In this document: positions 16,447 through 51,835 of the stretch, piece after piece
Layout of the letters: each line of letters begins with the position of its first letter
Numbering within the stretch: the stretch's first letter is position 1
Assembly (NCBI RefSeq): GCF_001421165.1
Contig: NZ_LMKB01000006.1
Location: forward strand, 90,112-154,111
DNA length: 64,000 bases
DNA from: Frigoribacterium sp. Leaf8
GTDB lineage: Bacteria; Actinomycetota; Actinomycetes; Actinomycetales; Microbacteriaceae
Direction: 5' to 3'
Notes under the pieces: model-generated
Database searches by the model: none
What the model saw: only the letters and a program-made list of their open reading frames with translations
What the model was told of the DNA's origin: nothing
Translations under genes and position numbers: made by a program

Positions 16447-16986
16447 ATGTTCCAGGGATCCGACCAACTCCGCGACAACATGCAGAAGGTCCTCGTCGAC
16501 CTCATCGAGCTGCACGTCCAGGGCAAGCAGGCGCACTGGAACCTGCTCGGCTCGAACTTCCGCGACCTCCACCTGCAGCTCGACGAGATCGTCGACGCGG
16601 CCCGCGAGTTCAGCGACGAGGTGGCCGAGCGCATGCGCGCCGTCTACCTGATCCCCGACGGCCGCACCTCGACCGTCACCCGCGGCACGAGCCTGCCCGA
16701 GTTCCCCGCGGGCCCCGTCGAGACCACCGCGGTGGTCGACCTCATCGTCGACCGCATGTACGCCGTCACCGGCACGATGCGCACGGTCCACGACGACGTC
16801 GACGACGAGGACCCCACGACGGCCGACGTGCTGCACAGCATCCTCGAGCGCCTCGAGCAGCTCGCCTGGATGACCGGCGCCGAGAACCGCCACCCCGAGA
16901 AGGACGCCCGCCAGGACGACACGCGTCAGCGTGACGAGGACGCCGCGGCCGAGGGCCTCGACCGCGTCGGCGCCGTCGCCAACTGA
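16447..16986 (+). CDS. dps: Dps family DNA-binding ferritin
   Basis: A 179-residue Dps protein, which forms 12-subunit shells that oxidise iron with peroxide and coat DNA in starved or oxidised cells. H30, H42, D57 and E61 fall exactly on the conserved inter-subunit ferroxidase positions of the family. The C-terminus carries an acidic/charged tail (about 150-179) instead of a Lys-rich tail, so DNA binding may be weak. The ATG at 16447 follows GGGAG. A strong hairpin separates it from the downstream reductase gene. Confidence 0.88.
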   Translation: MFQGSDQLRDNMQKVLVDLIELHVQGKQAHWNLLGSNFRDLHLQLDEIVDAAREFSDEVAERMRAVYLIPDGRTSTVTRGTSLPEFPAGPVETTAVVDLIVDRMYAVTGTMRTVHDDVDDEDPTTADVLHSILERLEQLAWMTGAENRHPEKDARQDDTRQRDEDAAAEGLDRVGAVAN

Positions 16987-17000
16987 CCCGACCACCTCAC

Positions 17001-17050
17001 GAGGGCACCGTCCGGGAGCGCGCCACCCGCGCCTCCCGGGCGGTGCCCTC
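17001..17050 (+). terminator. Intrinsic terminator-like hairpin after dps
   Basis: Arms 17001-17018 and 17033-17050 pair at 17 of 18 positions around a 14-nt loop. The structure begins 14 nt after the dps stop and ends about 20 nt before the next start. The loop and right arm contain the CGCGCCTCC motif. No T-tract is seen. Confidence 0.75.
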
Positions 17051-17071
17051 TCTCGTCGAGAGGACGACCCC

Positions 17072-18256
17072 ATGACCGAATCGTTCGACCACGTCATCGT
17101 GGGCGGCGGCATGACCGCCGACGCCGCCGCGAAGGCCATCCACGACACCACCCCGGACGCGTCGGTGCTGATCGTCAGCGCCGACGTCGACGCGCCGTAC
17201 ACGCGCCCGGCGCTGTCGAAGAAGCTCTGGACCGACCCCGACTACACCGAGGCCGACAACGCTCTCGGCACCGTCGCCGACTCGGGTGCCGAGATCCGGC
17301 TGCGCACGCTCGTCGAGTCGATCGACCGCGAGGCCCGCACCGTGACCACCGACCGCGGCGACGTGATCGGCTACGGGGCCCTGCTGCTCGCCACTGGAGG
17401 CAGCCCCGTCGCCCTCGACCTGCCGGACGACGACCGCGTCGTGTACTTCCGGACCGCCGAGGACTACCGCCGACTCCGCTCGCTCTCGGGCGGCGGCCGG
17501 CACGTCGTCGTCGTGGGCGGCAGCTACATCGGCACCGAGCTCGCCGCGGCCCTCGTGCAGAACGACACCCGCGTGACGCTGGTCTTCCCCGACGACGTGC
17601 TCGGCGGATCGGTGTTCCCCGCGTCCCTCGCCTCGTCGTTCGAGAAGAGATTCGAGGAGGCGCGGGTCGAGCTGGCGCGCGGACGTCGCGTCGAGAGCGG
17701 CACGGCCGACGACGCCGGCGTCCACCTCCGGCTCGACGACGGCTCGACCCTCGACGCCGACGCGGTCGTCGTGGGGCTCGGCATCTCGGTCGACGACCAG
17801 CTCGCGGCCGACGCGGGTCTGGCCGTGGACGACGGCATCGTGGTCGACGAGCACCTGCGGACGAGCGACCCGAACGTGTTCGCCGCCGGCGACGTGGCCT
17901 CGTACCCGGACGCGATCCTCGGGCGCCGCCGCGTCGAGCACGTCGACAACGCGAAGTCGCAGGGCCCCGTCGTCGGTCGCAACATGACCGGTGCCGACGA
18001 GGTCTACGACCACACGCCGTACTACTACTCGAAGGTCTTCGACCTCTCGTACGAGGCCGTCGGCACGCTCGACGCGTCGCTCGAGACGATCGTCGACGAC
18101 AAGGGCGAGGGCGAGGCCGTGGCGTACTACCTGGGCGACGACGGCGCGGTCGAGGGCGTGCTGCTCTGGAACGTCGAGGAGGCGCGTGACGCGGCCCGGG
18201 CGGTCCTCGCGGCGGGTTCCGATCTTGGGCAGAAAAACCTAGTTGGACTCATCTAG
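17072..18256 (+). CDS. FAD/NAD(P)-dependent pyridine nucleotide-disulfide-type reductase
   Basis: A 394-residue flavoprotein of the AIF/ferredoxin-reductase type. The N-terminal FAD motif VGGGMT (about 10-15), the NAD(P) motif VVVGGSYIGTE (about 145-155) and the FAD-closing motif FAAGDVAS near 270-277 are all present. It probably reduces a ferredoxin, rubredoxin or quinone. The ATG at 17072 follows GAGAGGAC. The last 12 or so codons (after AAGS, from about 18221) switch abruptly to AT-rich codons such as ctt, aaa, cta and gtt. The 3' end therefore appears to be supplied by the inserted islet, yet the reading frame closes with a plausible tail. Confidence 0.82.
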   Translation: MTESFDHVIVGGGMTADAAAKAIHDTTPDASVLIVSADVDAPYTRPALSKKLWTDPDYTEADNALGTVADSGAEIRLRTLVESIDREARTVTTDRGDVIGYGALLLATGGSPVALDLPDDDRVVYFRTAEDYRRLRSLSGGGRHVVVVGGSYIGTELAAALVQNDTRVTLVFPDDVLGGSVFPASLASSFEKRFEEARVELARGRRVESGTADDAGVHLRLDDGSTLDADAVVVGLGISVDDQLAADAGLAVDDGIVVDEHLRTSDPNVFAAGDVASYPDAILGRRRVEHVDNAKSQGPVVGRNMTGADEVYDHTPYYYSKVFDLSYEAVGTLDASLETIVDDKGEGEAVAYYLGDDGAVEGVLLWNVEEARDAARAVLAAGSDLGQKNLVGLI

Positions 18257-21110
18257 GACAACCCCTAAAGGCCCGTATATGCGATAGGTTCCGAGTTGTT
18301 ATCACTTCTCTTGGCGGACCGCATCCAAGCTTGCGCCGTGCAACTAAGAGTTCGGGAGTCTCGAATGGCCGGTCGCTTCATCGACTTACAAACGCGCCTT
18401 GAGGGCCTTCGAGAAGAGCCGCAGCGCAAGCTCAGCTTTTTCTTCGGGTCAGGGTTGAGCAATGCCACGCTGCCCTCAACCGCCCTTCTGGCCGACACGT
18501 TTCTCGCACTCTTAAAGCCAGCATTTCAGGAGGAAGTGCGCACCTCGGATAACGGGCGGAAGGGTGCGCCGGGCCTTTATCAAGAGGCTGCCAAACTTGT
18601 GGCGCTCCACAAGGGTGACTTGGTGATAGCTCGTGTCATTCGCGAAGCCGTCCTAAGCGCTTATAGAGGCGACACGTCACGCTTGGAAATTACCGGTCGT
18701 CCCGGCACGTATGACGAAGCGGCCCTCCATGACCTCACGATGTCCCCAGGACTCTGGAACATACCTTCGGGATACCGATCCTTCGCGAAATTTTTCAAGA
18801 GCATTCCTGCCGAATTCCGTGGACGGGTACTGACAACGAACTTTGATCCTTTTATAGAGATGGCTCTTGCTCAGGCGGGCTTAGAAGCCGAGCCCGAAAC
18901 GCTGGACTTTGACAATCCACCCTCCGTCGAAGCAAGTCGCTTCAGTCGGACTGAAAAAGTCGTCCATCTCCACGGCTACTTCGCCTCGACATTCGGTGTG
19001 AATACAATTGGTCAGCTCGAGCGCGTGCGGCCCAACACGGAGAACTATCTGCAGCAGCTTCTACAGGGCCACTCTGTAGTAGTAGCAGGATACGGCGGGT
19101 GGAATGACGCCTTCACGAGAATGCTGTGGCGCGATTCCTCCTACAGGACACTTACCGACGCCGAGGTCCTGTGGAGCACTTTCGACGGAAACGCAAATAA
19201 TGCACTGGACGTTCCGATCATTGCTGAACTCGATGGCCGGCCTGGATTCCATCTTTTCGTAGGTGTTGACGCGGGCGAACTCTTCGTGACGGCGGATACG
19301 ACGGAGCCACTAACGGCAGAGGTCCTGCTTCCCAGGGGCTATACGAGCGTCGAAGGTGTCCCCCTCATTGCCAGCCTGCCTATATCCTTTGCCGAGGGGG
19401 CGCAGCCCACATGGACTGATGCCGCTAATGGAACGTGGCCCCTTTTGTCCCCTGGCAAACAGCTATACGACCTAGTGGCAGAAGGTAGTAAAAAGCTGGT
19501 CGCCGCGGTTGGACCCATAGCCGAGGGTAAGAGCACTGCCCTCAAACAGGTTGCCTGGCGTCTCGCGAACGAAACCGAATCCTGCAGGGTCATTTGGCGC
19601 GAGGCGGGCGCATCTCCAGCGGCAGACGAAGCCCTGGGAAATATGGATTTCAAGCCTAAGACTTTAATTGTCATCGACGACGTGGAGAGTGCAGTACCGC
19701 TGCTTCGAAGGCTCATCCGAGTGTTAGAAGAGACGGACATCGGGCTGCGCGTGATGGTGGCATGTCACGACCGCCACTGGGCTTCGGCCCTGCGTTTCGC
19801 ACATGGTTTGGCGCATGTAGTCAAATTTGGTGACCTGGAAGAACAAGACGCCGACGCTATAACCCGGACGTGGGATCGCTACAACATTCTTCCCGAATCG
19901 TCCTCAAGCCAGGAGGTCTTGGCATCAGCTCTTCTTCAAGCAGCTCACGGCAACCCCCAGGTCGACGGAAGCTCTCTGTTTGGCGCAATTCTAGCCGTGA
20001 GGGAAGCGGCAACGCTTAATGAGCGTATTGGTGCCCTTATGCGGAGTCTTGACGCAGTAACTGTCTCTCGCGCAAACACCATAACCCTCACGGATGTCTT
20101 CGGATCTATCTGCGTTCAGCAACATTTTCTCGACGCGGCGAATACCAACGCAAAGGGGGCGACCCGCAAGTTCCTGTCGGAGCTCATCAAAGGCGACGAA
20201 GCAGTTCTCGACGAAACTGTTCTCTTTCGCTTGGGACGGGAGGCTGCGCTGACATTCTCCGGTGAACGCGTCTACGCGAGGCACCCCGCGATAGCAACAG
20301 CTGTGGTCGCGTGGCTCGAGGACAATCAAAGACTAGGTTCCGTCTGCGAAAAGACTGCATTTGCAGGCGCTACCCTCCGGCAAGCGGGCCTGGTTTCCAC
20401 GGATGATTACGATGCATACATGCTGCCGGGGAGCATGCCCACTTACGGTCTAGCAGTTGCTGCAGGCAGGGGGGCGATGTTGGGAGCTCCCAAGCTGCTT
20501 GAGGCTCGAGTAAACTACATATCAACAATTCGCAGGCTAGAACAGTACGAGGATGCACTTCTTTTCGCGAGAGGCACAGCCAGCAATCTGGGGCGCTATC
20601 GGGATTGGCGCACAGCGACGAGGGGGTTGCTCACTGAGGCACATCTGCTCTTGGAAGCTGATTACGAGCCTGGACTCGGACTGGGTGCGGCTGCTTTATC
20701 GCTCCACGATCCCTTGCTTCCTTATCTAAAACCAATCCAGGCTCAACGCGGCCTTGTAGCAATCTGTCGTCTTGCAGACAAACTTGTCCTCCAAGGCGAT
20801 AAGAACGCCGGTCCAGTACTCTTCTTCGCACACTCCCTACTTATCGACAGGTTCGGACCCACGACTCTTGCTCTAAGAACTAACCCAACAACACCGAAAA
20901 ATATTAATGGAAGCCTCAGCGGTGCTGCCTTGTCGACAGCACTAGCTCAGGCTGCCAGTCCATACGCGCGAAAGCTCCTCAAGGATTGGGACCTACCTTT
21001 TGGGCCGACGGTACGCGGCGAATGGCAACTTCCATTCAACAACTACATCGAATACACAAAATTGGGGGCGATCTAAAGCGGCTAATTTTATATTGCTTAA
21101 CGCCTTGATC
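18221..21110. mobile_element. Low-GC genomic islet carrying a SIR2-STAND gene
   Basis: From about 18221 to 21110 the sequence drops visibly in G+C and uses codons rare elsewhere (tta, ata, aga, act). It contains no GGAGGCGCG motif, unlike most flanks. It inserts between a reductase and an SMP-30 gene that would otherwise converge. No integrase, transposase or terminal inverted repeat was seen; the only matching ends are a 6-bp CGATCT at 18220-18225 and 21069-21074, which chance could give. It carries one gene. Acquisition by transfer is inferred from composition. Exact ends are uncertain by tens of bases. Confidence 0.7.
18365..21076 (+). CDS. SIR2-STAND NTPase, Avs5-like candidate anti-phage protein
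   Basis: A 903-residue multidomain protein. Residues about 20-290 form a SIR2-like NAD-binding domain: GSGLS (28-32), TTNFD (near 158, the catalytic-site Asn), HLHG (near 201, the catalytic-site His) and VVAGYGGWND near 240. Residues about 350-600 are a P-loop NTPase with Walker A GPIAEGKST (383-391) and Walker B TLIVIDDVE (433-441). The C-terminal 300 residues are helical and TPR-like, as in STAND sensors. Known SIR2 defence proteins (Thoeris, DSR, Avs5) deplete NAD after sensing phage; this role is inferred. The ATG at 18365 has GGGAG 7 nt upstream; a TTG 23 codons earlier is less likely. AT-rich codons mark transfer. No partner gene is present. Confidence 0.85.
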   Translation: MAGRFIDLQTRLEGLREEPQRKLSFFFGSGLSNATLPSTALLADTFLALLKPAFQEEVRTSDNGRKGAPGLYQEAAKLVALHKGDLVIARVIREAVLSAYRGDTSRLEITGRPGTYDEAALHDLTMSPGLWNIPSGYRSFAKFFKSIPAEFRGRVLTTNFDPFIEMALAQAGLEAEPETLDFDNPPSVEASRFSRTEKVVHLHGYFASTFGVNTIGQLERVRPNTENYLQQLLQGHSVVVAGYGGWNDAFTRMLWRDSSYRTLTDAEVLWSTFDGNANNALDVPIIAELDGRPGFHLFVGVDAGELFVTADTTEPLTAEVLLPRGYTSVEGVPLIASLPISFAEGAQPTWTDAANGTWPLLSPGKQLYDLVAEGSKKLVAAVGPIAEGKSTALKQVAWRLANETESCRVIWREAGASPAADEALGNMDFKPKTLIVIDDVESAVPLLRRLIRVLEETDIGLRVMVACHDRHWASALRFAHGLAHVVKFGDLEEQDADAITRTWDRYNILPESSSSQEVLASALLQAAHGNPQVDGSSLFGAILAVREAATLNERIGALMRSLDAVTVSRANTITLTDVFGSICVQQHFLDAANTNAKGATRKFLSELIKGDEAVLDETVLFRLGREAALTFSGERVYARHPAIATAVVAWLEDNQRLGSVCEKTAFAGATLRQAGLVSTDDYDAYMLPGSMPTYGLAVAAGRGAMLGAPKLLEARVNYISTIRRLEQYEDALLFARGTASNLGRYRDWRTATRGLLTEAHLLLEADYEPGLGLGAAALSLHDPLLPYLKPIQAQRGLVAICRLADKLVLQGDKNAGPVLFFAHSLLIDRFGPTTLALRTNPTTPKNINGSLSGAALSTALAQAASPYARKLLKDWDLPFGPTVRGEWQLPFNNYIEYTKLGAI

Positions 21111-21114
21111 ACGT

Positions 21115-21993
21115 CTACTTGAAGCCGAAGAGGAACGGCGGGCGCGCGGCCCGGTCGAGCTCGAGCGCGAAGATGCCGCCGCTCAGCGGGAACTCCTCGA
21201 GCTGTTCGTCGCTCAGCCCCTCGCGGGCCGACAGCACGAACAGCGTGCGCAGGTCGTCCCCGCCGAAGCCGATGCCGGTCAGGTTCGGCACCGGGAAGGT
21301 GATCTCGTCCACGAGACCGCCGTCGGCGTCGAGGTGCACCACCTTGCCCTCGCCGTAGATGGCCCCCCAGAACTCGCCGCGCTCGTCGCGGGCCAGGCCG
21401 TCGTGGGCGCCCTGCGACGAGAACGGGACGAGCTCGCCCAGGGTGCCTTCGGCATCCCACGAGGCCCGGTAGATCGTGTCGTCACCGGTGTCGGTGAGGT
21501 AGATCTCGCTGCCGTCGTCGTTCCACTCGAAGCCGTTGGTCGTGGCGAAGTCGTCGCGCAGCTGGGTGAGGGTGCCGTCGGGGGCGACGCGGTAGAGACC
21601 GGCCACGGGGCTGCCCTCGGGGTCGGTGGCGCCGACGACGAAGGCGCCGAACGGGTCGCACTTGCCCTCGTTCAGCCGGAGGCGCTCGTCGGCGTGGTCG
21701 ACCGTCGCGATCGTCCGCTGCTCGGTCCCGTCGTCGCGCATGACGATCACCGTGTCGTCGAGTGCGGCGATCAGGCCGCCGCCGCGCCGACGCTGGAAGC
21801 TCGGCAGGGGTGGGTCGACGACGACCGTCGTGTCGCGTGTGCCGTCCGCCGAGGTGCGGTGCAGGAGGCCGTTCGTGATGTCGGTCCAGACCAGCTCGTG
21901 GGCGTCCACGTCCCAGACGGGACTCTCGCCGAGGGTGGCCCTCGCGTCGAAGAACAAGCGGGGCTCGGACGTGGTTCCGGTCGGAAGAGGCAT
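21115..21993 (-). CDS. SMP-30/gluconolactonase family lactonase
   Basis: A 292-residue six-bladed beta-propeller lactonase. Metal ligands typical of the family are in place: E23 (GESPVWD), N153 (TTNGF) and D198 (HDGLA), with N108 in LNEGKCDP nearby. It likely opens a sugar lactone such as gluconolactone, which would fit the gluconate genes at 42-44 kb, though they are not linked. TAGACC (complement of 22000-22005) lies 6 nt before the ATG, so a leaderless mRNA is likely. The stop is only a few bases beyond the low-GC islet. Confidence 0.85.
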   Translation of the reverse strand: MPLPTGTTSEPRLFFDARATLGESPVWDVDAHELVWTDITNGLLHRTSADGTRDTTVVVDPPLPSFQRRRGGGLIAALDDTVIVMRDDGTEQRTIATVDHADERLRLNEGKCDPFGAFVVGATDPEGSPVAGLYRVAPDGTLTQLRDDFATTNGFEWNDDGSEIYLTDTGDDTIYRASWDAEGTLGELVPFSSQGAHDGLARDERGEFWGAIYGEGKVVHLDADGGLVDEITFPVPNLTGIGFGGDDLRTLFVLSAREGLSDEQLEEFPLSGGIFALELDRAARPPFLFGFK

Positions 21994-26489: not shown

Positions 26490-26768
26490 ATGACGCCGAA
26501 GGACGAGACTCCCCCGCAGCTGAAGAACCCCGACATGTACGAGGCACTCCGCGACGAGGGGGCGTCGAAGGAGAAGGCCGCGCGCATCTCGAACGCCGCC
26601 GCCCAGAAGGGCAACAGCGAGAAGAAGGTGGCCGCCAAAGGCGGGAAGTCCGGTTCGTACGACGACTGGACGGTGGAGGAACTCAAGGCACGCGCGAAGG
26701 AACTCGGCGTGACCGGCTACTCCGACCTGAAGAAGGCCGACCTGATCGAGGCGCTCCGCGAACACTGA
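26490..26768 (+). CDS. Small Rho-N-domain protein
   Basis: A 92-residue, Lys-rich protein. Residues about 55-90 (WTVEELKARAKELGVTGYS...LIEALREH) form a Rho termination factor N-terminal/SAP-like helix-extended fold that can bind nucleic acid. The first half, with KEKAARISNAAAQKG, resembles DUF7218. TACGGT (26477-26482) lies 7 nt before the ATG, so a leaderless mRNA is likely. It converges with the Ku gene 9 nt away. In actinobacteria similar small proteins occur near Ku; whether it helps end joining is inference. Confidence 0.75.
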   Translation: MTPKDETPPQLKNPDMYEALRDEGASKEKAARISNAAAQKGNSEKKVAAKGGKSGSYDDWTVEELKARAKELGVTGYSDLKKADLIEALREH

Positions 26769-26777
26769 CCGTCGCGG

Positions 26778-27776
26778 TCAGCCGGCCTTCTTCTTCGGGG
26801 CCGCCTTCTTGTCGGAGGCGGACGAGGCGGGCTTCTTCCTCGCCGCAGAACCCGACCCTCCGGACGTCGACCGCGAGGACTCCTTCTTCGAGGGCTCCTT
26901 CTTCGCAGGCGACTTCTTCGCGGCGGGTTTCGTCGACGACGACGCCGCGGCCTTCTTGGTCGGCTTGGGATGTCCGCCCGACCGGTTCTTCTCGACCGAC
27001 CGACGCAGCGCCTCCATCAGGTCGATGACCTCGCCGCCCTCGTCGTCGTCCTCGGGCTTCTCGCCGAAGGTGGCGTCCGTGTCGAGCGACTCGCCTTCCT
27101 CCAGCTTCGCGTCGATCAGCTGTCGCAACTGCTCCTGGTAGTCGTCGCTGAAGTCCGCGGGCTCGAAGTCGTCGCTCAACGAGTCGACGAGCGACGACGA
27201 CATGTCGAGTTCCTTGTCGCTGACGCGCGTCTGCTTCTCGAGCGCCGGGAACCGTGCCTCGCGCACCTCGTCGTCCCAGAGCAGGGTCTGAAGCATCAGC
27301 ACGTCGCCGCGGACGCGCAGGGCCGCGAGCCGGGTCTTCTGCCGCAGCGAGAAGTGGACGATGGCCGTGCGGTCGGTCTCCTCGAGGGTCCGGCGCAGCA
27401 GCACGTAGGCCTTGGGCGAGGTGCCGTCCGGCTCGAGGAAGTAACTGCGGTCGAGCATGATCGGGTCGACCTGGTCGCTCGGGACGAACTCGAGCACGTC
27501 GATCTCGCGCGAGCGCTCCTCGGGCAACGACTTCAGGTCGTCACCCGTGATCACCACGGTGCGGTCGCCGTCGTCGTAGGCCTTGTCGATGTGCTCGTAG
27601 TCGACGACCTTGCCGCAGATCTCGCACTTCCGCTGGTACCGGATGCGGCCACCGTCGGCGTCGTGCACCTGGTGCAGGGACACGTCGTGGTCCTCGGTGG
27701 CGCTGTACAACTTGACGGGGACGTTGACGAGCCCGAACGTGATCGCGCCCTTCCAGATCGATCGCATGACGCTCAT
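26778..27776 (-). CDS. ku: Ku protein, non-homologous end joining
   Basis: A 332-residue bacterial Ku. The homodimer rings DNA ends and recruits LigD. The beta-barrel core is in residues about 1-255, beginning MRSIWKGAITFGLVNVPVKL, with a Cys pair (CEICGKVV near 50). The C-terminal tail (about 270-332) is a long Lys/Ser/Ala/Pro stretch, a DNA-binding extension seen in soil actinobacteria. The first ATG (27776) has GGAGA in front; a second ATG three codons later would also work. The gene diverges from the SDR gene, and LigD lies 1 kb on. Confidence 0.92.
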   Translation of the reverse strand: MSVMRSIWKGAITFGLVNVPVKLYSATEDHDVSLHQVHDADGGRIRYQRKCEICGKVVDYEHIDKAYDDGDRTVVITGDDLKSLPEERSREIDVLEFVPSDQVDPIMLDRSYFLEPDGTSPKAYVLLRRTLEETDRTAIVHFSLRQKTRLAALRVRGDVLMLQTLLWDDEVREARFPALEKQTRVSDKELDMSSSLVDSLSDDFEPADFSDDYQEQLRQLIDAKLEEGESLDTDATFGEKPEDDDEGGEVIDLMEALRRSVEKNRSGGHPKPTKKAAASSSTKPAAKKSPAKKEPSKKESSRSTSGGSGSAARKKPASSASDKKAAPKKKAG

Positions 27777-27860
27777 CTTTCTCCGCGTGCGCTCCGAATG
27801 ACCGCCGGTGGGGTACAGACCCCCGAGCGGCGGAGGCGCGGCGAGGGCACCGTGGGCGTC

Positions 27861-28748
27861 ATGAGCCAATACGACAAGAAGAACCCGGTCGACCTCTACC
27901 CCGCGCCGCCGTTCCCGAAGCAGGAGCAGTCGCTGCCGGGCGAGGCCTGGAAGATGGACCCCAAGCCCGACCACGGCGAGACCAGCTACGTCGGCAAGGA
28001 GCGCCTCACCGGCTTCCGCGGCGTCGTCACCGGCGCGGACTCGGGCATCGGTCGCGCCGCCGCGATCGCGCTCAGCCGTGAGGGCGCCGACCTCGTGCTC
28101 AGCTACCTTCCCAGCGAGCAGAAGGACGCCGAGGAGGTGCGCGACCTGCTCGAGGGCGAGGGGCGCAAGGCCGTCCTCGTCCCCGGCGACATCTCGGACG
28201 AGCAGTACTGCAAGGACCTCGTGCAGAAGGCCGTCGACGAGTTCGGCGGGCTCGACACCCTCGTCATGGTGGCCGGTCGGATGAAGAGCAACGACGACAT
28301 CCTCACGCTCACCACCGAGGACATCGACTCGACCATCAAGACCAACGTCTACTCGCTGTTCTGGCTGACCCAGGCCGCCATCCCGCACCTCGAGCCCGGT
28401 TCGTCGATCGTGACGACCGGCTCGGTGCAGGGCACGCAGCCGAGCCCGGACAAGATCGACTACGCGCTCACCAAGGGTGCGATCGGCGTCTTCACCTCGG
28501 GCCTCGCGCAGCAGCTCGCACCCAAGGGCATCCGCGTCAACCAGGTCTCCCCCGGCCCGGTCTGGACGCCCCTGCAGCCCGGCTCCGACGACGCCGAGAC
28601 GGTGTCGGAGTTCGGCGGCCAGGCGCCGTTCGGTCGCCCCGGCCAGCCCGCCGAGCTCGCCGCCGCGTACGTGCACCTGGTGAGCCCGGAGTCGAGCTAC
28701 ACCTCGGGCGCGACCATCACGATCGCCGGAGCGATGCCCGCGGTCTGA
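27861..28748 (+). CDS. Short-chain dehydrogenase/reductase, YhdF/YgaD-like
   Basis: A 295-residue SDR. The TGADSGIG cofactor motif is at about 57-64, and the catalytic S188, Y201 and K205 (YALTK) are all present. The extended N-terminus (YPAPPFPKQEQSLPG...) before the Rossmann fold is typical of stress-linked oxidoreductases of the YhdF/YghA type. The substrate is unknown. The ATG at 27861 is used; a GTG three codons upstream is also possible. It lies between Ku and LigD, but its function need not be linked to end joining. Confidence 0.85.
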   Translation: MSQYDKKNPVDLYPAPPFPKQEQSLPGEAWKMDPKPDHGETSYVGKERLTGFRGVVTGADSGIGRAAAIALSREGADLVLSYLPSEQKDAEEVRDLLEGEGRKAVLVPGDISDEQYCKDLVQKAVDEFGGLDTLVMVAGRMKSNDDILTLTTEDIDSTIKTNVYSLFWLTQAAIPHLEPGSSIVTTGSVQGTQPSPDKIDYALTKGAIGVFTSGLAQQLAPKGIRVNQVSPGPVWTPLQPGSDDAETVSEFGGQAPFGRPGQPAELAAAYVHLVSPESSYTSGATITIAGAMPAV

Positions 28749-49844: not shown

Positions 49845-50975
49845 ATGAGCCCTCTCTCCGTTCCTCCCGCGTTCCGCTCCACCTCCCTCGACCGCCGCGG
49901 GTTCCTGCGCCTGGGCGGGTCGGCCGCCCTCGTCGTCGGCACGACCGCCCTGCTCGCCGCCTGCACCGACTCGTCGGCCGGGACGGGCGCGGCGACCGGC
50001 GGGGCCGCGTCCGGCGGGTCGTTCGGCACCATCGCCGTCCAGCTCTCGTGGATCAAGAACATCGAGTTCGCGGGCGAGTACTTCGCCACGGAGAAGGGCT
50101 ACTACACCGACGCCGGCTTCAGCGAGGTCACGCTGCTCGCGGGCGGCGGGCAGACCGGAGCCGAGGAGGCGCTGCTCGCCGGGCAGGCCAAGGTCGGGTT
50201 GTCGTCGGCCTCGCTCACCGGCCCCTCGGTCGCTCAGGGCGCCGCCCTCAAGATCATCGGCACGACGTTCCAGAAGAACCCGTTCTGCCTGCTCTCGCTC
50301 GAGGAGGGAGAGCCGATCCGCACCCTGGCCGACCTCAAGGGCAAGAAGATCGGCGTGCAGTCCGGCGGCAACCAGACGATCTTCGAGGGCTTCCTCAAGG
50401 CCAACGACATGACGCTGGACGACGTCGAGCTCGTCGCCACGCAGTACGACATCGCCCCGCTCGAGACGAACGCCTACGACGCGCACATGTCGTACATCAC
50501 GAACGAGCCGATCCTCGCCGAGATGGACGGCTTCACCCCGGTCGTGCTCGGCTTCGCCGACAACGGACTTCCCTTCGTCGCCGAGACCTTCACCGTCACG
50601 CAGGACACCATCGACAACGAGCGCGACATGCTCAAGGCCTTCCTGGTCGCCGAGATCAAGGGCTGGACCGACGCGGTGAAGGACCCGGAGCAGAGCGCGA
50701 AGTACGCCGCCGAGAAGTACGGCAAGGACCAGGACCTCGACGTCGAGGAGCAGACGGCCGAGGCCGAGGCGCAGAACACGCTGATCCTCACCGAGGACGT
50801 CAACGCCAACGGCCTGTTCACGATGACCGACGAGCTGGTCGCCGAGAACATCGCCTCGCTCAAGGCCATGGGCACCGACGTGTCGGCCGACGACCTCTTC
50901 GACCTCAGCATCATCAAGGAGGTCTACGAGGAGAACCCCGACCTCGTCACGACCTTCGAGATCCCCACGGCATGA
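49845..50975 (+). CDS. ABC importer substrate-binding lipoprotein, NMT1/THI5-like
   Basis: A 376-residue solute-binding lipoprotein. It has a twin-arginine-like R17-R-G-F-L-R22 and lipobox LLAAC with lipidated C40. The domain starts [23 protein letters not shown], the THI5/NMT1 hallmark; relatives bind thiamine precursors, riboflavin or aromatic and nucleobase-like ligands. Downstream purine-catabolic genes make a nucleoside or base the best guess, an inference. The ATG at 49845 follows CAGGAG. The stop overlaps the ATPase start. A possible -10 TAGCTT lies near 49801. Confidence 0.82.
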
Positions 50976-51835
50976 CCATGACGGACGGCACCACGACCGC
51001 GCGCACCACGCTGCCGCTCACGACGGCCACGGGCGACCCCGCCGGCCGACCCGAACTCGCCACGGGCATCAACATCCAGGGGCTGACCAAGTCGTTCCAG
51101 CTCGGCCGGAAGAGCGTGCAGGCCCTGACGCAGATCGACCTGGGCACGAAGAAGGACTCGTTCCTCAGCCTGCTCGGCCCCTCGGGCTGCGGCAAGTCGA
51201 CCATCCTGCGCATCCTGGCCGGGCTCGAGACGCCCACCTCGGGCAGCGTCGTGATCAACGGCAAGACCGCGGCCGAGGTGCAGCGCGGGCACGAGACGGG
51301 CATCGCGTTCCAGGACTCGGCCCTGCTGCCCTGGCGCAGCGTGGAGAACAACATCCGGTTGCCGCTCGAAGTCGCCGGGCTGACTCCCCCGGCCGGCCTG
51401 ATCGACGACCTGATCGACCTCGTCGGCCTGAAGGGCTTCGAGAAGGCCAAGCCGGCGCAGCTGTCGGGCGGCATGCGCCAGCGCGTCTCGATCGCCCGCT
51501 GCCTCGCCGTGCAGCCGACCATCATGCTGCTCGACGAGCCCTTCGGCGCGCTCGACGACATGACGCGGCAGCGCATGAACGTGGAGCTGCTGCGCATCTG
51601 GGGCGAGAAGCCCGCCACGACGCTCATGGTGACGCACGGCATCGCCGAGGCCGTGTTCCTGTCCGACGTCGTCGCCGTGATGAGCGCCCGGCCCGGCCGC
51701 ATCGCCGAGGTGGTCGAGATCGACCTGCCCCGACCGCGCCTGCCCGAGCTGACCCGCACGCCGGAGTTCCACGCGTACGTCGACCGCATCTCCGAGATCC
51801 TGTTCGGCTCGCACGGGGCGGCCGCCGATGACTGA
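50972..51835 (+). CDS. ABC importer ATPase
   Basis: A 287-residue ATP-binding subunit. Walker [10 protein letters not shown] is at 69-77, the signature [10 protein letters not shown] near 166 and Walker [12 protein letters not shown] near 190. It resembles SsuB/TauB/ThiZ-type ATPases of NMT1-type importers. The N-terminal 30 residues are unusual Thr-rich. It starts in the ATGA overlap with the lipoprotein gene; a second ATG two codons on is possible. It overlaps the permease start by 8 nt. Confidence 0.9.

What the first reader, a model, noticed from the sequence alone, without database searches (positions are those of the whole stretch)
18221..21110. Low-GC islet with an isolated SIR2-STAND protein, candidate new anti-phage defence
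One 903-residue gene, far lower in G+C than all its neighbours, joins a SIR2-like NAD-consuming domain (GSGLS, TTNFD, HLHG) to a P-loop NTPase (Walker A at 383-391, Walker B at 433-441) and a helical sensor-like tail. This is the Avs5/SIR2-STAND plan, where sensing a phage protein assembles the NTPase and triggers NAD loss. Seen: domains and composition. Known: SIR2 defence families. Inferred: defence role and acquired origin. The helical tail may define a new sensor class.
Basis: partly seen in the sequence, partly recalled or inferred. Interest (0 to 1): 0.85.

Follow-up and report, generated by a model that had tools for sequence, protein, structure and literature searches.

The report
Acquired single-gene SIR2-STAND immune candidate
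A bacterium has gained, probably by swapping in a short piece of DNA from a relative, one gene whose protein looks like a bacterial immune receptor that would destroy the cell's NAD when it senses an invader; it resembles the known Avs5 defence proteins but has a different motor domain and an uncharacterised sensing end.

Summary
Window 18365-21076 (+) encodes an intact 903-residue protein with an N-terminal SIR2_2 domain, a P-loop STAND NTPase and a helical tail. The islet (about 18217-21122) has 55.5% G+C against 72.5% outside. In 15 of 15 other genomes searched of the genus, one labelled same species, the site is empty: the two flanking genes lie 12-150 bp apart. The last 12 residues of the upstream reductase came with the islet and resemble that gene's end in another genus of the family, so acquisition by homologous replacement is likely. 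The NTPase is Pfam nSTAND5, not the nSTAND3 reported for Avs5. Six full-length relatives share SIR2_2 + nSTAND5. Foldseek's best solved match is Avs5 (9jap, E 1.7e-17). Best reading: a stand-alone Avs5-like NADase receptor of a separate SIR2-nSTAND5 subfamily. Phage defence, NAD loss and trigger are inferred, not tested. The tail model is too poor to call a new sensor class. New variant of a known kind.

The parts
18217..21122 (.). acquired low-G+C islet (limits to within a few bases)
   Evidence: homology to the 15 other genus genomes stops at 18200-18217 and resumes at 21123-21152; 55.5% G+C against 72.5% outside
18365..21076 (+). SIR2-nSTAND5 gene, 903 aa plus stop
   Evidence: GGGAG at 18354-18358
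18365..19264 (+). SIR2-like effector domain, residues 1-300 (Pfam SIR2_2 at residues 155-259; N159 and H203)
19385..19786 (+). nSTAND_NTPase5 domain, residues 341-474 (Walker A 383-391, Walker B D438-D439)
19880..20368 (+). mostly helical region after the NTPase, residues 506-668, with the invariant R639-H640; place of the STAND arm (inference)
20369..21073 (+). divergent helical tail, residues 669-903, likely sensor (inference)
   Evidence: block pLDDT 25-68; 14-20% identity to relatives
18217..18256 (+). foreign 3' end of the upstream reductase gene: last 12 residues (SDLGQKNLVGLI) and stop
   Evidence: 15 of 15 genus relatives end in LVGRI or LAGRI; orthologues of genus g5 end in NLVGLI or NLVGMI in 4 of 5
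17072..18256 (+). flanking native gene: pyridine nucleotide-disulphide oxidoreductase (start by inspection within the longer frame 16931-18256)
21115..21993 (-). flanking native gene: SMP-30/gluconolactonase family, convergent; it ends FLFGFK, unlike any of the 15 relatives (FLFG, SLFG or LFGPxx)

Best explanation
The gene is a self-contained immune receptor of the SIR2-STAND kind. The helical C-terminal tail holds the protein off and recognises an invader's product; ATP binding by the nSTAND5 NTPase then lets the protein assemble; assembly activates the N-terminal SIR2 domain (N159, H203), which splits NAD and stops the infected cell. Shown here: the domains and their order, conservation of the catalytic and nucleotide-binding residues in 7 of 7 proteins, likeness of the model to Avs5, and recent acquisition. 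Inferred: NAD cleavage, assembly on triggering, phage as trigger. It works like Avs5 but its NTPase belongs to another Pfam family, so it is best filed as a separate SIR2-nSTAND5 subfamily. The islet was most likely brought in by double-crossover replacement of the stretch between two convergent genes, from a relative of the same family.
For: SIR2_2 and nSTAND_NTPase5 above cut-off. Six full-length relatives, 901-941 aa, six of six with both domains above cut-off; N159, D161, H203, K389 and D438 identical in 7 of 7, residue 439 acidic in 7 of 7. Foldseek in PDB: EfAvs5 9jap first (E 1.7e-17, 954 columns), next DSR2 (7.1e-8); also Apaf-1, SPARSA, Avs3, SIR2/HerA, RuvB-type ATPases and ThsA. Low GC3 of the gene in the window (0.58), its family relative L035 (0.56), Dietzia L083 (0.60) and Nocardioides L087 (0.60), against mostly 0.8-0.98 in neighbours. 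Site empty in 15 of 15 other genus genomes. Foreign reductase end, and the same convergent gene pair in 3 of 5 loci of genus g5. Tail diverges most. The same NTPase type occurs with a Cap4/LmuA-like N terminus in L054 (Pfam Cap4 E 0.0045, below cut-off; PADLOC LmuA 1.5e-11). For PaAvs5, NAD loss and need of the SIR2 asparagine, Walker motifs and C-terminal repeats are reported in PMC12931631.
Against: No experiment. PADLOC matches only the SIR2 part, to pAgo-type, PDC-S65 and a SIR2 model; none of the 9 families listed is an Avs or DSR model. No known defence gene was recognised among 10 neighbour proteins of the relatives scanned by Pfam, nor among 3 of L087 scanned by PADLOC. No match in 50,697 phage records; no confirmed match in viral contigs. 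The NTPase part of the family profile matches a transposition ATPase (ATP-dependent target DNA activator B, 8xvb, E 6.8e-6) better than it matches the Avs5 NTPase (E 0.056) in the PDB sequence search. Foldseek TM-scores are low (0.27); domain placement and the tail are uncertain (pTM 0.51). No promoter-like site was found, 0.8 expected by chance. The SIR2 domains of the 7 proteins do not form one clade (AU p 0.005), so the subfamily is defined by architecture and may have arisen more than once.
Confidence: 0.77

Rival explanations
1. It is simply a far clade of Avs5, and the nSTAND3/nSTAND5 difference is only divergence within one family.
For: EfAvs5 is the first Foldseek hit over 954 columns. 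The three PaAvs5 homologues tested in PMC12931631 share only 18-21% identity. L054 scores both nSTAND5 (5.7e-16) and nSTAND3 (7.4e-6, just under cut-off), and L035 scores nSTAND3 at E 0.018. The family profile touches the 9jap NTPase at E 0.056.
Against: No nSTAND3 match for the window protein at E 1 or better; no Avs model among the PADLOC matches; the SIR2 sequence is nearest FAM118B among solved structures.
Confidence: 0.35
2. It is an NADase defence receptor, but its usual trigger is plasmid or other mobile DNA rather than a phage protein.
For: Nothing here identifies the trigger; the SIR2 part also matches SIR2-pAgo models, some of which act on plasmids (recalled).
Against: STAND architecture and a divergent tail fit protein sensing as in Avs proteins (PMC12931631).
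Confidence: 0.12
3. The SIR2 domain does something other than bulk NAD cleavage (deacylation, ADP-ribosylation or signalling) in a regulatory role.
For: SIR2 folds also deacylate (recalled); human FAM118 proteins, the nearest solved relatives by sequence, are weak NAD processors on their own (PMC12700824).
Against: The SIR2 domain of PaAvs5, likewise joined to a STAND NTPase, lowers NAD and raises ADP-ribose on infection (PMC12931631); patchy presence and acquisition do not suit housekeeping.
Confidence: 0.07

Closest known systems
Avs5 (AVAST type 5; EfAvs5 PDB 9jap; PaAvs5, PMC12931631)
   Same: Three-part plan: SIR2_2 effector, central STAND NTPase, helical C terminus; first Foldseek match; TTN-D motif and Walker motifs.
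   Different: NTPase is nSTAND5 (PF25199) instead of nSTAND3 (PF20720); canonical HG motif (H203), where PaAvs5-1 has NG (HG is about as frequent as NG in Avs5); no TPR/Sel1/PPR found by Pfam in the tail; 12% identity in the structural alignment.
SIR2 proteins with an NB-ARC NTPase and TPR traces (for example L049, Granulicella plasmid)
   Same: Related SIR2 domain (28% over residues 72-341), same general order.
   Different: NB-ARC NTPase, about 1020 aa; SIR2 relatives of this size often show a GxGGxGKS loop.
DSR2
   Same: SIR2 effector with long C-terminal region; second in the Foldseek list.
   Different: No P-loop NTPase (recalled); here the Walker A lysine and Walker B aspartate are invariant in 7 of 7.
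Cap4/LmuA-like + nSTAND5 protein (L054, genome G457)
   Same: nSTAND5 NTPase; aligns to window residues 339-501.
   Different: Different N-terminal domain; no other aligned stretch was reported.
FAM118B (human SIR2_2 protein; PDB 9r3e, 9r0p)
   Same: Nearest SIR2 sequence among solved structures.
   Different: Chains of 298-371 residues; no STAND NTPase or tail.

Membership tests
SIR2-STAND class (plan) | N-terminal SIR2_2 domain with catalytic N and H | tested here: met
SIR2-STAND class (plan) | central STAND P-loop NTPase with Walker A and B | tested here: met
   PF25199 E 2.3e-26; K389, D438 in 7 of 7
SIR2-STAND class (plan) | C-terminal helical sensor | tested here: inconclusive
   helical but block pLDDT 25-68; diverges most
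Avs5 | nSTAND3 NTPase (PF20720), as described in PMC12931631 | tested here: not met
   no nSTAND3 match at E 1 or better
Avs5 | fold over the full length | tested here: met
   9jap first, E 1.7e-17, 954 columns; TM only 0.27, so order of domains rather than arrangement
Avs5 | TPR/Sel1/PPR repeats in the C terminus | tested here: inconclusive
   no Pfam repeat at E 1; weak profile touch on a kinesin light chain, E 0.73
Avs5 | filament formation and NAD loss on phage infection | not testable with these tools
   needs bench work
Avs5 | match to an Avs model in PADLOC-DB | tested here: inconclusive
   none among the matches; no positive control with a true Avs5 was run
DSR1/DSR2 | SIR2 plus helical region without P-loop NTPase (recalled) | tested here: not met
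   P-loop NTPase present
SIR2-pAgo (SPARSA) | SIR2 linked to a short Argonaute partner | tested here: not met
   the gene stands between a reductase and an SMP-30 gene; only the SIR2 part matches those models

The most novel reading that the evidence does not exclude
SIR2-nSTAND5 proteins are a defence family of their own, parallel to Avs5: a rare, mobile, single-gene NADase receptor built on the nSTAND5 core, onto which SIR2 domains (and, in L054, a nuclease-type domain) were joined more than once, with a tail that senses ligands unlike those of Avs1-5.
Probability: 0.4. Interest if true: 0.6.

Novelty: new variant of a known kind. Interest (0 to 1): 0.42.

Why it matters
If true, the STAND-NADase strategy has been built at least twice on different NTPase cores, and effector swapping on the nSTAND5 core becomes directly testable. 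The same-species empty site gives a natural pair of strains. The replaced reductase end suggests how a single immune gene can move between genera by ordinary recombination.

Tried and rejected
Site-specific integration: apart from the gene, frames lying wholly inside the islet are at most 133 aa (not searched against a library), no repeat lies at the edges themselves, and by eye the displaced reductase end of the relatives is not at the right edge, so replacement fits better than insertion. One 20-nt direct repeat of 80% identity does lie outside both edges (18142-18161 and 21147-21166); it is G+C-rich, in native sequence and probably chance, but was not tested further. Assembly artefact or contamination: not excluded without reads; the in-frame, homologous reductase end and the contig of 545,754 bases argue against it. 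Cargo hotspot in the genus: not seen, 15 of 15 relatives have 12-150 bp between the two genes. Origin from a plasmid or phage: plasmid tblastn gave 11 of 72,556 records, all on the SIR2 part, at most 24% of the query; phages none; DNA of the left edge none in plasmids. Left edge elsewhere in the 16 genus genomes: best other match E 0.09. First genome-contig scan with the window protein alone: 7 stretches matched a pattern, none confirmed. A single origin of the SIR2-nSTAND5 fusion: the SIR2 tree (74 of 81 rows; 7 dropped as too short or with an early TTN motif; L109 of the 80 loci left out before that as a fragment) rejects one clade, AU p 0.005, with long branches as a caveat. A conserved partner gene: none seen, except that L085 and L086, close relatives, share a downstream HTH-nucleotidyltransferase gene. 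PF25199 as a search probe: at E 0.001 it rang in 292 of 296 phylum genomes and in 14 of 14 control genomes, so only matches over the cut-off (13 of 296, own included; 0 of 14 controls) were used. Literature: PF25199 in no held paper; searches showed no title or abstract start about a SIR2-nSTAND5 defence protein; PMC8195603 passages name nSTAND1 and nSTAND2, and SIR2 as one of 13 effectors of another STAND-type system.
Full report
What is there. The frame 18365-21076 on the + strand encodes 903 residues, with a GGGAG six bases before the ATG. Pfam gives SIR2_2 at 155-259 and nSTAND_NTPase5 at 341-474, both above cut-off. PADLOC matches only the SIR2 part; NCBIfam gives one match far below its cut-off and PHROGs two weak ones to families of unknown function. 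The gene is 56.0% G+C with GC3 0.58; eight nearby genes measured have GC3 0.935-0.975.

How it got there. The protein has one match in its own genome. In the genus, 2 of 16 genomes match it, the window's own and G008 with a partial NTPase match. Both flanking genes are present in 16 of 16 genomes, and in the 15 others, one of them labelled same species, 12-150 bp lie between their stop codons, against 2,858 bp in the window. Homology stops inside the reductase gene (18200-18217) and resumes at 21123-21152. All 15 relatives' reductases end in LVGRI or LAGRI; the window's ends in SDLGQKNLVGLI, with the last 45 bases at 51% G+C. Of five orthologues of genus g5 in the same family, three end in NLVGLI (L170, L172, L173), one in NLVGMI (L171) and one in DLRGRI (L175); their last 45 bases have 67-71% G+C. 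In 3 of those 5 loci (L170, L172, L173) an SMP-30 gene lies convergent next to the reductase. The simplest reading is that a fragment from a relative of the family, holding the end of the same reductase and the SIR2-nSTAND5 gene, replaced the native stretch by homologous recombination. Whether the odd SMP-30 end (FLFGFK) came along is unclear: it matches neither the 15 genus relatives (FLFG, SLFG or LFGPxx) nor the three g5 loci (RLFG, FFG). The exact donor was not found.

Relatives. Searches with the protein found matches in 8 of 398 genomes of the family (own included), only one of the others long (G022, L035, 27% over 715 alignment columns), and in 6 of 396 of the phylum (own included), the rest partial. 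PF25199 passes its cut-off in 13 of 296 phylum genomes, own included; most of these matches begin at profile position 34-44, and besides the window only G457 (1-143) and G516 (10-137) span nearly the whole model. A scan of one genome for each of 84,980 species with the two-row profile gave 84 relatives of 189 candidates, 80 kept. Five of the 80 match far beyond the SIR2 domain: Dietzia maris, Nocardioides mangrovi, and Polaromonas, Rhodocyclales and Sulfuritalea MAGs. All five, and L035, carry SIR2_2 and nSTAND5 above cut-off. The other 75 loci were not scanned by Pfam; by loop pattern some have an NB-ARC-like loop and many no recognised P-loop. The catalytic and Walker residues are identical in 7 of 7. 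Identity of the window protein to the six is 25-31% in SIR2, 25-33% in the NTPase, 21-29% in the next region and 14-20% in the tail, the pattern expected of a sensor. In the window, L035, Dietzia and Nocardioides the gene has GC3 0.56-0.60, lower than most neighbours, which suggests repeated transfer or a composition peculiar to the family; in the three Pseudomonadota MAGs the difference is smaller (0.48-0.75).

Modularity. A tree of 74 SIR2 domains puts the window with Dietzia and Nocardioides (97/85), the three Pseudomonadota ones together with a Chloroflexi SIR2 protein (100/98), and L035 apart; one clade for all seven is rejected (p 0.005), with long branches as a caveat. L054 joins nSTAND5 to a Cap4/LmuA-like N terminus (below the Pfam cut-off for Cap4), and a profile comparison aligns the two NTPases (probability 94.5, E 7.7e-8). 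Effector exchange on an nSTAND5 core is thus likely, not proven.

Structure. In the model, ten-residue means of pLDDT are 70-95 for residues 1-300, 61-95 for 351-660 and 25-68 for 670-903. Foldseek in PDB ranks EfAvs5 (9jap, labelled SIR2-STAND) first by nearly ten orders of magnitude over DSR2, followed by Apaf-1, SPARSA, Avs3, SIR2/HerA, RuvB-type ATPases, ThsA and others. TM-scores are low, so this supports the order of domains, not their arrangement. By sequence profile the nearest solved chains are FAM118B for SIR2 (E 5e-8) and, for the region after the Walker A motif, a transposition ATPase (8xvb, E 6.8e-6); the Avs5 NTPase scores only E 0.056. In the viral library the first match is an ankyrin-repeat protein (E 1.8e-5), and those named among the 50 listed are mostly AAA+ ATPases and clamp loaders, none a SIR2 protein.

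Mechanism. For PaAvs5, PMC12931631 reports NAD hydrolysis on infection and loss of immunity when the SIR2 asparagine or the Walker A residues are changed, and that the C-terminal repeat domain is essential for activation. PMC12700824 states that filament formation appears to be needed for activity in ThsA and Avs5. By analogy the window protein would sense with its tail, assemble through its NTPase and cleave NAD. None of these steps was tested here.

Verdict. The protein works like Avs5 by plan and fold but fails the NTPase criterion of Avs5. It is a new variant of a known kind of immune receptor.

Noticed in passing
L054:1-2715 (-), genome G457: A 905-residue stretch (frame continues beyond the locus) joins a Cap4/LmuA-like N terminus to an nSTAND5 NTPase: possible sister system with another effector.
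   Followed up: partly
L087:663-5302 (-), Nocardioides mangrovi: Three genes of 290, 313 and 879 aa with GC3 0.65-0.81, upstream of the SIR2-nSTAND5 gene, without Pfam match at E 1e-4 or PADLOC match at E 1e-3: possible unknown defence or mobile cluster.
   Followed up: partly
L085:8837-9412 (+) and L086:3418-3993 (+): Shared downstream gene with a helix-turn-helix and a nucleotidyltransferase domain next to the SIR2-nSTAND5 gene in two related MAGs.
   Followed up: no
L103:5920-9834 (+), Chloroflexi MAG: 1305-residue SIR2 protein whose only P-loop found by pattern is at residue 760; its SIR2 domain groups with the Pseudomonadota SIR2-nSTAND5 proteins.
   Followed up: no
L002 (G008:C1:2849358-2849828): Another genome of the genus holds an 836-residue frame with a weak match to the NTPase part only: perhaps another STAND protein.
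   Followed up: no
window 26501-28500 and 50001-51000: Mild dips in G+C (0.66-0.68) elsewhere in the window.
   Followed up: no
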